Assembly: GCA_025349905.2 (NCBI GenBank)
Contig: MU624616.1
Span: forward strand, 1 to 40,315
Source: Blastocladiella britannica
Taxonomy: Eukaryota > Blastocladiomycota > Blastocladiomycetes > Blastocladiales > Blastocladiaceae
Length of the DNA stretch: 40,315 nucleotides
Direction of reading: 5' to 3'
Positions 712 through 8,328 of this stretch are shown one piece after another. The notes under the pieces are model-generated. The model was not told the origin of the DNA, searched no databases, and saw only the letters and a program-made list of their open reading frames with translations. The first letter of the stretch is position 1. Each line of letters starts with the position of its first letter. The position numbers were made by a program, and so were the translations under genes.

Positions 712-3700
712 CTATTTCAAATGCGCGAGGTTATGCACCCACCAATTCAGCTGCGTGCTCCATCCAAGCCGAAGACTCTCAAAGATTAGGTTCTGGAACT
801 CCTCAGCCGCCTCGGACTCGCTCAAACCAAGGCAGAACGCGTCTCGCAGGTAGGCAATGTCGTCCGCCGTCTGCAGCTCTGGAATGCCCGTGGAGAGCAT
901 GAGCAAGAAGAGATTCATGAATACATTTGCGTTTCGCCTGTTACAAGAGTCCATATGATGAGATGGATCCACTCAACAGCAGAAAAAATAGCATACCGCA
1001 AAACCAAGTAGGCTCGAACCGCCGTCGCGACAAACGTATCGAAATTGGCCGGATTCTTCTTGCTAATGACATGCACAAAGTCTGGCGTCAGGACAAAGGG
1101 CGCGCGCTCGCGCTTGATCCCGAATTTCCGCTTGATATTGCCCAAGAAATGACCAAAGTCAATGTGGAACAACCGGCCCGTCTGCGTGACCATGATGTTG
1201 TCGTTGTGGCGATCGCCGATCCCAAGGCAGAACGTGGCGACACAGTAGCCAGCGCAACTGAGCGTGAAGTTGTTGACGGCGCGGTCATAGTCCACCTCGG
1301 ACGGGTTGTGGGCGCGGATCCACTTTTCAAGCGGCTCCTCCTTGAATGCTGCGGTGGACCCACCGGACGCGAGCTGAATCGAGGACACGGTCGCTGAATG
1401 GGGGACCACCTCGATAAACCCGCTGTCACGGCCCGTCGACATGCACCCGTAAAGAGTCATGCGCAAATCGAGACCTTCGTTGCGCCACAGCCGGTCCATG
1501 ATGCGGAGCATTTGGAGCGTAAGGGCATCTTGCCGCAAGTCGTCGCCGGCCTTGTAAATCACAAGCAAGTCAGCTGCGGCGGCAGGGGCGGCAGCCGGCG
1601 GTACAAGTGGGCTGAACGGTGCTGGCAGCCCTCTTGGCGACTCGAGGCCGCTGGAGGGTGGAGACACGGAAGAACCTGATGCAAGGGTGGTGGTTGCCGC
1701 AGGAGCGACACTGGTTGAGCTCAAAGGCAGCTGAGCGCTGTTGGGCGACGACGAGGTCGGGGTTGGCGGCGGAAGCGACCATCCTTGGAACGCGGTTCGA
1801 TTGTCGGTAAGGAGATCGAGTGGCCTGGCATTGGGAGCCGGGGCGGTTTTGAACGCGATCCAGAGCGGCAGTTTCTTCGAGTCCATGACCTTGCACTTTT
1901 CGAGGGAAATGGACGACACGTGCATGTCGTGACGGAGCGGCAGTCGCTGCCCTTGGATCACTGGCGCGCCTTTGAGCCGCGAAATGAGCGTGTCGCGCCG
2001 ATCACGGATGCCGGGCTGCTTGACGGCCCACGCTGCCTCGTTCAGCCGATCCACGAGCTGCTGCTGGTACACGAGATCCATGATATCGGGCTGGATTCCA
2101 CGGAGATATGCGTCCAGCAGTACCAGGTACAGTGGAATCATGGCAGCATTGTCCATTTCCGCCTGTTTTATTGTTGTTGTGGTAGGTCAGAAAGAGCTCA
2201 CTTGCTAGAAAAAAAAAATTGCCAAGTACCTTGACACTCCAATAAAAGATGTGACCAATGCGGGGAGACAGCAACGCTCGACGCAGCAAAAACCGCGCCA
2301 GACTCGAGTCTGGGTGGTGCTCAAAGGAGAGCGCTTGCACGAGCTGCATCACATAGTCGCTCAATGCGTCATCCGACAACGTCTCCAAGGCGCAGACGGC
2401 AAAATCGCGTACGTCGTCGTCGGCAAAGTACCCGTCCAGCAACAAGAGCGCAGTCTCGACCGATATGGGACGCCAGATATTGAGAAGCCGCCGGGTCTCA
2501 ATCACGTCCTCGAGGTGATCGCAGTTGCTTGAAACCAGGACCTTGGGCAGCGATTCTGGGACCGACAACAGAAACACGCGGTGGGTCCACACGATTTTCC
2601 GCACACTGTCGCTGAGCGGGGCCAAGGGGTCCCACTGAAGAACGTCCTCGAGTACCTTCATGTCGTCCGCGCAAATATCCTCGCGCGCAGCCGAAATAAG
2701 CTTGTCGTAGTCGGTGTTTTCGAGCAGGGTGTGGTCCGTTTGGTCCGGAAAGACGACCGGGTGCGTGTACTCTTCGAACCGAACCTGCACCATGGGGCTG
2801 CCAACCTTGCATGGGGAGGTACATGGCCCCATATCGCTCGCGTCCTTGCCCTCCCACAGCCGACAAGTATACGATCCCTGGCGAAAGTAGCCGCGATTAT
2901 CAACGAGCAGGAGCGAGACAGTCCCAATCGGGATATGTTTCGCTGCCCGCTCATGGTCGCTGCCTCGGCGCTTGGGCGCGGTCGGATTGCCATATATGGT
3001 CACCGTCATTCGCGCATTGCGGGGCAAGCTGTAAATGGGGATATCGAAAATGATAAAGTTGAGCCATAGCGGGTCCGCGCTGGCTTCCACATGCCGCGTA
3101 CGAACGGGCGCGCACAGCGCCTTGCCCCCAAACATGCTGTTCGAATGTAATGTAAGTCACCTCTGAGAAAATAAAGAGACAGGCCGCGTACATTTTTGCC
3201 TCGACGAATAGCGAGTCGAGACCAGGGGGCACCACCAGTTTTTCTGCCCGAGTGATTTCCACGCGCAAGTTCATGCTCAAGTCCCACATGCTCAAGAGCT
3301 TGACACCAGCCCGGTCGCGACCACGCAGCGTCAACTCGGCGTGCTTTCCCGGCGAAGGGTTCCCCTCCTCGGCAAAGAGGTCGCTGCCAGCATACGACGA
3401 GAGAATATCAGTGGTCCGTTCGTCCTCGAGTCGGCGAATGGTCCAGCTCAGGTCGGAGCGAACGCCGGGAAGGGATGTGTTGGGAGGCATGTGCGTAATG
3501 ACCAGGTCGATTTTCTCGCCACGAGCAAGCGAGTGCCGGATCGCAGCATGGTCAATCAGTGCGTGGTCGGGATGCAGGTATTCGGGTCGCCCTTGCAGCT
3601 TGAGCGCAAACCTCCGAGCCGTCACCTCGGTGGCTGCATTGCCATTTCCATTGCCGTTGCCAGCGGCCGTTCCGTTTTCGTCGAGCGCGTGGGACCCGTC

Positions 3701-6700: not shown

Positions 6701-8328
6701 GCCCAGGGTCATGTTGGCGGAAATCTGGATGTTGGTGGTGCACTCGGTCGAAACATGCACCTTGACGATTGGTGTGTGCGGCGCAGATCCCGATCGAGGC
6801 AGAGCGCTCGCCCCTGACGTTGCAGCAGATGCGCCACCACCCGATGACGATGGATCCGTGGTTCGGTGGGACGAACGAATTGAGTGTGACCGCCGGAACT
6901 CTTGCCGGAGGCTTGCCATGGTTGGGTTGCCGTTTGGCAATGTTGAGGGATGGGGCAGTTCGCCCGCAGATGCGCTAGCGGCGTACTCGTCATCCGGAAT
7001 CCCGAATCGCCCAGGCCGCGATAACGGTGATGGCATCGCGGGGGCAGCGCCGTTGGAGAGGGAGCTAATCGAGTGCGAGGACGATGGCAATGGATCCATT
7101 GAGCCGCTGTTTCGCGCAGGGTGCCGAGTGAGCGACGGGGAAGATTTTTGCTCGTCGGCCGTAGACGACTCTCGGAATGTGCTGTTACGCTCTGCCAGCG
7201 AATTTTGCGACAGCGAAGAGACAGACGACATGACATCGGCTTCGAGGTCGCTGGTGGAAGGAATATCCACTTTCAGGGGGAGGTAGACGGAAGTCGGCGT
7301 ATTGGCGCTTCCCGGGCTCTCTACCAGCGGTGAACTCGGGAGAGACTGCGACTGCGAGCCGTGAGTCATGGTGGATGCTCTGGAGCGCGACATGGGCGCT
7401 TCGGATCCAGTGTTGAGAAACGCGGGCAAGGATGAAGTGCCAGTCCCCTTTCGTAATTGGGACATGCGCGTCGCGACTGAGGCAGCGCTCTGAGTCGTGG
7501 AAGCCGAGATGGATTTGATGAGGGATGGCTCGCCCGATACACGTTCATAGGCCTGTCTTGTCACGAGCGAGCACATGGGCATGACCCCTGCTGGGACCAG
7601 GCGAACAAAGTCGTGCTCTGCAACAAGACGATGAATTGTTGGGTCCTTTATATTCCAAGTTGTTGATGTTAATCTCTCATGCCAGTCCATACGAAGCAAG
7701 AGACGTACAATTGGACAGTTTTCAGCAACAAATATGTATGCTTCCTTGGCGAGCAGCGAATGCCCTCCGACCTTTGAAATATATATAATTTCGTCAATAA
7801 GGGCAGGAAGTCAATGGCCACACTACAAAAACGCACCCGCAGTTTGGTATAGACCATCTCCAGAAAGTGTGCAACCGTCACTGACGCACGATCCACAGCC
7901 AGGGTTGTCGTGATATCAGCCTCGTCGTACCGCACTCGAACCAGTAGTTGTTGCCCTAATGGTTGTGATCCACTCGAAGCAGCGGAAAGGACAGGGGTGG
8001 AGGAAGATGGAACCTCGCCCATTGTCCTGGCAAGCGCCGACTTTAATGGGGAGGTCGACGACGGACTCGAATCCGCGGTGCCATGGCGTTGATGCTGGTT
8101 GTGCGCATGGCGCAGGGCGCCAGAGATCGAGTGTATGAGCGAAGGGGAACTCGAGCGACTGCTACTCGAGTTTGCTGTCCCGCTGCGTGGCCTTTCACTC
8201 GCATCGGTGGCAGCAGCGGCAGTCCCTGCTCCATCTCCAGTGCCAGTTGGTGCGGACGATTTCGGTTGCAATGGTGAAGAATCGCTTTGCCCCGAACGGC
8301 GTCGAGCCCGCGCCAAAAGTGAGGACAT
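712..8328 (-). CDS. Class I-type phosphoinositide 3-kinase catalytic subunit with tandem N-terminal RBD-like repeats
   Basis: Predicted 2456 aa from five exons; introns at 7772-7836, 3137-3191, 2163-2229 and 938-996. The core has canonical class I order: adaptor-binding-like domain (about 1235-1340), Ras-binding domain (about 1438-1593, LQGRPEYL motif), C2 (from about 1663), helical domain (to about 2060) and kinase domain. Seen in the kinase domain: ATP-site Lys in YKAGDDLRQD (K2197), catalytic loop GDRHNDN (2309-2315), DFG (2328-2330) and the basic loop GIKRERAPF that in class I enzymes recognises PI(4,5)P2. The family makes PI(3,4,5)P3 at the plasma membrane. Residues 127-1014 add four ubiquitin-fold, RBD/RA-like repeats separated by Ser/Ala-rich linkers. 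A Pro/Ser/Ala insert of about 70 aa sits in the kinase N-lobe (about 2119-2191). The start is the first ATG of the open frame; an upstream exon cannot be excluded. Confidence 0.93.

What the first reader, a model, noticed from the sequence alone, without database searches (positions are those of the whole stretch)
712..8328. Class I-like PI3K with four tandem RBD/ubiquitin-fold repeats before the catalytic core
Four segments (about residues 127-215, 497-586, 721-778 with its second half near 843-890, and 918-1014) each begin with a beta-hairpin of the form VxVxLPxGxxTNVxV, followed by a helix ending in (E/G)KL. They resemble RBD/RA modules, and a separate canonical RBD sits further on in its normal place. 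Known p110 proteins have one RBD. An array could count or integrate several small-GTPase signals, or bind a polymerised partner. The repeat pattern is seen; its meaning is inference.
Basis: partly seen in the sequence, partly recalled or inferred. Interest (0 to 1): 0.85.

Follow-up and report, generated by a model that had tools for sequence, protein, structure and literature searches.

The report
Fungal PI3-kinase with extra RBD-like modules
An aquatic fungus carries a signalling lipid kinase of the animal type with four additional copies of the kind of module by which such kinases sense small switch proteins, an arrangement shared by several relatives, which suggests a kinase that may read several switch signals at once.

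The parts
712..8328 (-). whole class I-type PI3K gene; exons 8328-7837, 7771-7709, 7645-3192, 3136-2230, 2162-997, 937-712
   Evidence: splice model; the 63-nt intron 7708-7646 follows the public protein P0001
7550..7950 (-). module 1 (RBD/ABD-like ubiquitin fold, interrupted by two introns)
   Evidence: family profile vs out-of-clade ABD 93.5%, RBD 92.7%; weak alone, 2.3 bits; orthologue alignment; not folded
6494..6775 (-). module 2 (RBD/ABD-like)
6356..6400 (-). conserved linear motif SIFSLIEAYR between modules 2 and 3
   Evidence: alignment A1: kept in P0002, nearly in P0003, degenerate in P0005
5672..6103 (-). module 3 (RBD/ABD-like, with a low-complexity insert of 64 residues at 5738-5929)
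   Evidence: RBD 95.7%, ABD 90.9%; strand/helix pattern
5222..5512 (-). module 4 (RBD/ABD-like)
4925..5074 (-). conserved linker stretch with RLITxxDxxRDMxMFDGP..RRSS.xPxSQL before the ABD
   Evidence: 30 of 50 residues identical to P0002, 25 of 46 aligned to P0005, 16 of 42 to P0003, 9 of 39 to P0004
3479..3958 (-). canonical RBD, interrupted by a Ser/acidic insert (about 3614-3835)
   Evidence: Pfam PI3K_rbd 3.7e-11
2833..3292 (-). PI3K C2 domain
   Evidence: Pfam PI3K_C2 9.5e-17 over 2833-3132; start by inspection
2230..2667 (-). helical (PIK) domain
   Evidence: Pfam PI3Ka 3.8e-42
712..1562 (-). lipid kinase domain to the C terminus
   Evidence: Pfam PI3_PI4_kinase 3.5e-57 over 996-1562

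Best explanation
It is a genuine class I-type PI3K catalytic subunit whose N terminus carries an array of four further modules of the PI3K's own RBD/ABD-type ubiquitin fold, on long low-confidence (probably disordered) linkers, ahead of an ABD and an RBD (shown). I propose that the array is a multivalent receptor for membrane-anchored, GTP-loaded Ras-family proteins: several modules engage GTPases through the same strand-2/helix-1 face as p110 RBDs, so the kinase is held on the membrane and is fully active only where active GTPase is dense, or where two kinds of GTPase coincide (inferred). The canonical RBD next to C2 would still deliver the allosteric step (inferred from p110).
For: Shown: one gene and frame; family-level homology of modules to PI3K ABD and RBD; fold of modules 2-4; the same four modules in order in P0001, P0002, P0003 and P0005, and module 4 with a truncated module 3 in P0004. 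Consistent with GTPase binding: all four window modules have K at a helix-1 column and N or T at a strand-2 column; hhalign puts that K against p110gamma K251 in 4 of 4 families and the strand-2 residue against T232 in 3 of 4, module 4's aligned part starting one residue later. K/R at the helix-1 column: 17 of 18 Blastocladiomycota modules, 44 of 78 RBDs, 6 of 25 ABDs. T232 and K251 contact H-Ras in p110gamma and are among the residues whose single mutation prevents or reduces binding (PMC5700975, passage). Module 4's tied best matches include RA domains, among them chains from Ras complexes 8b69, 7scw and 2c5l.
Against: No binding data. No module segment of the window reached a Pfam cut-off (module 2 RA 13.2 of 21 and PI3K_rbd 12.7 of 22 bits, the other three none; module 1 was given with the 63-nt intron retained and module 3 as its first half only). 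Module 4 alone against the out-of-clade RBD profile is near chance, 8 of 100 shuffles as good. Modules are about as close to ABDs as to RBDs. Against a two-sequence p110gamma profile the module families are not significant (0.75-5.6%, all together 38%), and MAFFT places p110gamma F248, not K251, in the helix-1 column. A strand-1 base seen in 16 of 17 modules has no p110gamma counterpart in that alignment. In the sister group K/R is in 9 of 15 at helix 1 and 2 of 15 at strand 1, and its modules 1 and 2 match neither profile well (0.8-17%). Sequences are related, so P values are nominal.
Confidence: 0.5

Rival explanations
1. The modules are ABD-like adaptor docking sites: they bind helical or coiled-coil scaffolds, making the kinase a hub for several regulatory subunits, not a GTPase reader.
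Against: In one search, 48 of the 50 rows shown align module 2 to p110 189- or PI3KC2alpha 50- regions (RBDs, recalled) and 2 to the p110gamma ABD region. The helix-1 base is rare in ABDs, 6 of 25. Whether a p85- or p101-like partner exists could not be checked: the genome search gave no answer.
Confidence: 0.23
2. The modules act in cis: they fold back on the kinase core or each other and keep it off until displaced by a GTPase, phosphorylation of the RRSS linker, or membrane.
For: A conserved linker stretch RLITxxDxxRD..FDGP..RRSS lies next to the ABD; in p110s the ABD packs on the catalytic core (recalled).
Against: The model shows no confident overall arrangement (pTM 0.27, linkers under pLDDT 50), though it did not include the kinase core, so this hardly tests the idea.
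Confidence: 0.15
3. Structural spacers or drifted duplicates without a binding partner.
For: Module 1 is weak in this species. Module 2 is no more conserved towards P0002 than the linker after it (34 of 85 v 33 of 87 aligned residues), and the module 4-ABD linker (73 of 171) beats the ABD itself (28 of 92). Sister-group modules have diverged far, and P0133, inside the Blastocladiomycota clade, shows fewer than three modules.
Against: Four of the five named Blastocladiomycota proteins keep all four modules in order. Module 4 is 57 of 96 identical to P0002 against 9 of 28 in the linker before it, and module 3's first half 34 of 53 against 11 of 40 in its insert. The helix-1 base is kept in 17 of 18.
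Confidence: 0.12

Closest known systems
class I PI3K catalytic subunits (p110 alpha/beta/delta/gamma)
   Same: ABD, RBD, C2, helical and kinase domains in the same order; the orthologue P0004 scores best with p110gamma chains (614 bits; beta 600, delta 587, alpha 533)
   Different: four extra RBD/ABD-type modules and long linkers at the N terminus; inserts in the RBD and before the kinase GDDLRQD motif
other class I-type PI3Ks with one extra upstream module (e.g. P0006, P0012, P0019, P0021, P0121, P0127)
   Same: an RBD/ABD-like module N-terminal to ABD and RBD
   Different: one extra module, against four here
probable sanchytrid PI3Ks P0010, P0011, P0013
   Same: arrays upstream of the RBD; sister to the Blastocladiomycota proteins, support 0.991 and 0.999
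   Different: five upstream modules by my reading, more diverged, the first two matching neither profile well; species not named in the database
RA/RBD effectors (RalGDS, RGL2, PLC-epsilon, Raf RBD)
   Different: not PI3Ks; no such array (recalled)

Membership tests
class I PI3K catalytic subunit | RBD, PI3K-C2, helical and kinase domains in order | tested here: met
   Pfam
class I PI3K catalytic subunit | ABD on the N-terminal side of the RBD | tested here: met
   fold match to p110delta/alpha ABD; ABD profile found in P0002, P0004 and P0005, only E=0.093 in P0001 and not at all in P0003
class I PI3K catalytic subunit | no class II C-terminal PX and C2 domains | tested here: met
   precomputed domains of P0001-P0005 list none; the protein ends after the kinase domain
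class I PI3K catalytic subunit | makes PIP3 in cells | not testable with these tools
   kinase motifs GDDLRQD, GIGDRHNDN, HIDFGHFLG and KRERAPF are present by inspection; their meaning is recalled
class I PI3K catalytic subunit | p85- or p101-type partner | not tested
   The genome search with PF16454 gave no answer in 19 attempts; p101 was not tried
PI3K_rbd (PF00794), for modules 1-4 | reaches Pfam's curated cut-off | tested here: not met
   module 2: 12.7 of 22 bits, others none (module 1 with retained intron, module 3 first half only). Hence called RBD/ABD-like, not PF00794 members
PI3K_rbd (PF00794), for modules 1-4 | profile-level homology to PI3K RBDs | tested here: met
   families of modules 1-4: 92.7-95.7%, background at most 1.6%
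PI3K_rbd (PF00794), for modules 1-4 | beta-beta-alpha-beta-beta-alpha-beta ubiquitin fold | tested here: met
   module 2, modules 3 and 4; module 1 not folded
PI3K_rbd (PF00794), for modules 1-4 | Ras-contact positions (p110gamma T232, K251) | tested here: inconclusive
   hhalign equates helix-1 K with K251 in 4 of 4; MAFFT agrees on T232 but puts F248 at the helix-1 column
PI3K_rbd (PF00794), for modules 1-4 | GTP-dependent binding of a small GTPase | not testable with these tools
   needs protein
PI3K ABD, for modules 1-4 | profile-level homology to ABDs | tested here: met
   90.9-93.7%, so ABD and RBD origin are not separable by profile
PI3K ABD, for modules 1-4 | binding of p85 iSH2 or a similar coiled coil | not testable with these tools
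   needs protein

The most novel reading that the evidence does not exclude
A fungal class I PI3K that reads up to five small-GTPase inputs in one chain: four array modules plus the RBD bind the same or different Ras-superfamily members, so kinase output rises steeply with GTPase density or needs coincidence, an arrangement that arose by the common ancestor of Blastocladiomycota and sanchytrids.
Probability: 0.37. Interest if true: 0.8.

Novelty: new variant of a known kind. Interest (0 to 1): 0.6.

Why it matters
It shows that the PI3K ubiquitin-fold sensor can be multiplied within one kinase and kept across genera, and offers a natural case for testing multivalent GTPase sensing. It also shows class I-type PI3Ks in Fungi: the five proteins P0001-P0005 group with holomycotan relatives such as Fonticula and an aphelid (0.989; inner nodes below 0.14), whereas a 2015 survey concluded that classes I and II were lost in all Fungi (PMC4617754, passages). 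These fungi could help to date the loss of such signalling on the way to yeasts.

Tried and rejected
Separate-gene reading: rejected, uninterrupted coding sequence joins modules to the C2 domain and orthologues are annotated the same way.

Chance motif: rejected for the array as a whole. Pfam scans of the module segments and an NCBIfam scan of the two N-terminal exons gave nothing above a cut-off; the canonical RBD did (42.8 of 22 bits).

A protein search with the alignment of modules 2-4 and ABD (A1) found nothing at E <= 0.001, perhaps because low-complexity words filled the candidate list; it did not return even P0004, so it says little about stand-alone arrays. No other search looked for such arrays outside PI3Ks.

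PDB search with A1 gave only a Grb10 chain at E 0.92. With the module alignment A2, 18 of 27 rows are PI3K chains (2 PI3KC2alpha, 2 p110alpha, 12 p110delta, 2 p110beta), 6 are SNX27, RAPH1 or RAF1, and 3 are unrelated, one of them third (RPAC2, 0.018). The best E, 7.8e-4 for PI3KC2alpha, is a whole-chain value; its best single stretch has i-Evalue 0.57. I count this as suggestive only.

First ABD/RBD profiles were contaminated by array members, so they were rebuilt without P0001-P0005, P0010, P0011, P0013. The census profile contains those proteins' modules, so their own counts are in-sample; counts elsewhere may be low or rest on short matches. P0124 is a fragment and counts 0.

The background used module families 2-4, all modules, ABD and RBD against 13 core windows; family 1 was not in it.

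The module tree groups m4 of P0001, P0002, P0003, P0005 (74-96) and m3 of P0001-P0003 (83-89), but deeper nodes are weak and P0001/P0002 m2 do not group with P0003/P0005 m2, so the order of duplications is open.

One search does not bear this out (residue 223 is V in the p110gamma used, and the column is a gap), so it was dropped and the odds lowered: 0.55 to 0.5 for the GTPase array, 0.4 to 0.37 for the novel case, small rises for the adaptor and spacer rivals.

Own-genome searches for 18S rRNA (RF01960) and p85 iSH2 (PF16454) did not complete, so no statement on p85, p101, PTEN or AKT is made. The sanchytrid label for P0010/P0011/P0013 is inference from the tree and PMC8371127 (passages); Sorochytrium as a blastocladiomycete is recalled.

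Paper searches for prior description: in the rows listed I saw no paper on a class I PI3K of Blastocladiomycota or on a PI3K with an RBD array. Searches listed 15 of 1,862 and 15 of 3,390; the library lacks most subscription journals and preprints. Of PMC5700975, PMC8303222, PMC4617754, PMC3024228 and PMC8371127 I saw passages; PMC6299283 had no passage on PI3K; others only in listings.
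Full report
WHAT IS THERE. The window's first 8.3 kb hold, on the minus strand, one PI3K gene. Removing four GT..AG introns of 55-67 nt gives 2456 aa from ATG 8328 to the stop at 712. The same protein is in the public collections as BC828DRAFT_437039 of Blastocladiella britannica (Blastocladiomycota), 2435 aa, without 21 residues that correspond to a further 63-nt intron at 7708-7646 inside module 1. The orthologues support that intron: with it removed, the end of module 1 lines up with theirs. 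The coding stretch 7645-3192 is uninterrupted and joins the modules to ABD, RBD and C2, so the array belongs to the kinase.

CORE. Pfam finds PI3K_rbd (3.7e-11), PI3K_C2 (9.5e-17), PI3Ka (3.8e-42) and PI3_PI4_kinase (3.5e-57) in order. Kinase motifs GDDLRQD, GIGDRHNDN, HIDFGHFLG and KRERAPF are present by inspection. Among solved structures the orthologue P0004 scores best with p110gamma chains (614 bits), then beta (600), delta (587) and alpha (533) (60 of 100 rows shown).

THE FOUR MODULES. P0002 (Blastocladiella), P0003 (Allomyces macrogynus) and P0005 (Sorochytrium) carry the same four in the same order; P0004 (Paraphysoderma), whose model starts inside module 3, has the rest of module 3 and module 4. 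A profile of the aligned modules without those of P0001 finds modules 3, 2 and 4 in P0001 at 39.8, 38.7 and 36.8 bits and module 1 at 2.3 bits; 500 shuffles of the whole protein gave at most 1.0 bit.

WHAT KIND OF MODULE. RBD and ABD profiles were built only from PI3Ks outside the array-bearing proteins (79 and 25 sequences). Profile-profile comparison of module families with them gave, for modules 1-4, 92.7, 94.7, 95.7 and 95.3% with the RBD and 93.5, 91.8, 90.9 and 93.7% with the ABD; ABD against RBD is 97.6%, and 78 comparisons with windows of the C2-kinase core reached at most 1.6%. The five module families of the sister group give 0.8, 16.4, 92.1, 62.8 and 90.3% with the ABD and 17.1, 9.3, 27.8, 90.0 and 88.4% with the RBD. 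Single window modules are weaker: RBD bits 6.2, 7.7, 0.2, -1.8 and ABD bits 0.6, 10.5, 3.3, 2.1, with 0, 0, 0, 8 and 1, 0, 0, 0 of 100 shuffles as good. No window module segment reaches a Pfam cut-off, so I call them RBD/ABD-like, not Pfam RBDs. Across 21 modules scanned singly, PI3K_rbd, Raf RBD and RA each match 3, the best at 1.3e-4, 4.4e-4 and 9.3e-3. A profile of those 21 against all PDB sequences lists 18 PI3K chains among 27 rows, the best whole-chain E 7.8e-4, but its best single stretch only 0.57: suggestive.

THE RAS FACE. In an alignment of 35 modules, 79 RBDs and 25 ABDs the helix-1 position is K in 27, 41 and 3. By group, with gaps dropped, K/R there is in 17 of 18 Blastocladiomycota modules, 9 of 15 of the sister group, 44 of 78 RBDs and 6 of 25 ABDs. 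A base on strand 1 is in 16 of 17, 2 of 15, 16 of 35 (44 of 79 RBDs having a gap there) and 3 of 24. All four window modules have R or K, N or T, and K at these strand-1, strand-2 and helix-1 columns. To tie them to p110gamma I aligned a p110gamma (P0185): hhalign puts the helix-1 K of families 1-4 against K251 and the strand-2 residue of families 1-3 against T232, but the matches to a two-sequence p110gamma profile are themselves insignificant (0.75-5.6%; 38% for all modules), and MAFFT, while agreeing on T232, puts F248 at the helix-1 column and a gap at the strand-1 column. T232 and K251 contact H-Ras and are among the residues whose single mutation prevents or reduces binding (PMC5700975, passage); they are also among those changed in the p110gamma mouse that does not bind Ras (PMC8303222, passage). 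So the modules carry a basic helix-1 residue in the right neighbourhood; exact equivalence is likely but not settled.

DISTRIBUTION. In 217 homologues the number of ubiquitin-fold modules before C2 at E < 0.01 is 0 in 26, 1 in 54, 2 in 113, 3 in 16, 4 in 1, 5 in 2 and 6 in 5; reversed sequences gave none. The eight with four or more are P0001-P0005 and P0010, P0011, P0013 (among the 97 proteins added later none exceeded three). A tree of the C2-kinase region puts those eight plus the unnamed P0133, which has fewer than three modules, together (0.999), inside a holomycotan group with Fonticula and an aphelid (0.989), next to Capsaspora (0.981). P0010, P0011 and P0013 are probably sanchytrids, since sanchytrids are sister to Blastocladiomycota (PMC8371127, passages), but their records carry no species. 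So an extra module is scattered, and the array is an expansion in one fungal branch.

CONSTRAINT. Towards P0002, module 4 has 57 of 96 residues identical and the first half of module 3 34 of 53, against 9 of 28 in the linker between them and 11 of 40 in the module 3 insert; but module 2 (34 of 85) is no better than the linker after it (33 of 87), and the module 4-ABD linker (73 of 171) exceeds the ABD (28 of 92). Part of this is two conserved linker motifs.

HOW IT MAY WORK. Shown: homologous modules in front of a complete enzyme, kept in several genera. Inferred: binding of several membrane GTPases, giving avidity or coincidence detection, with the canonical RBD kept for the allosteric step. 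Against: closeness to ABDs, poor retention of bases in the sister group, no partner data. I put the GTPase-array reading at about 0.5 and adaptor docking at 0.23.

NOVELTY. A 2015 survey reported loss of class I and II PI3Ks in all Fungi (PMC4617754, passages), and a 2011 one that class III is the sole PI3K of fungi (PMC3024228, passages). The searches named in Tried and rejected showed no description of a Blastocladiomycota class I PI3K or of an RBD array. The kind (class I PI3K, RBD-type fold) is known; the fourfold array is a new variant.

Noticed in passing
window 4925-5074 (minus strand): Linker stretch RLITxxDxxRDMxMFDGP..RRSS.xPxSQL is as conserved as the modules towards P0002 and P0005; by eye a shortened form recurs in P0004 and the sister group. 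A candidate docking or phosphorylation motif.
   Followed up: partly
window 6356-6400 (minus strand): Short motif SIFSLIEAYR between modules 2 and 3 is kept in P0002 and nearly so in P0003 within otherwise variable linker.
   Followed up: no
window 1572-1832 (minus strand): A Ser/Pro/Ala-rich insert of about 85 residues just before the kinase GDDLRQD region; by eye P0002 and P0003 have inserts there, P0004 and P0005 do not.
   Followed up: no
window 28853-31375 (minus strand): SAM domain, Byr2-type Ras-binding domain (Ras_bdg_2 4.2e-9) and part of a protein kinase in one frame: a Ste11/Byr2-like MAPKKK, another likely Ras effector, about 20 kb away.
   Followed up: partly
window 19592-21322 (plus) and 19616-21076 (minus): The plus-strand frame matches Pfam NAD-GH (2.3e-95), but the minus strand is an HSP70 (1.8e-171); the plus-strand match looks like the antisense reading of an HSP70 gene.
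   Followed up: partly
related proteins P0006, P0012, P0019, P0021, P0121, P0127, P0130 and others: Sixteen of 217 PI3Ks show three ubiquitin-fold matches before C2, i.e. one more upstream of the ABD; some of these matches are short.
   Followed up: partly
P0001-P0005: Class I-type PI3Ks are present in Fungi, against a published statement that all Fungi lost them (PMC4617754, passages).
   Followed up: yes
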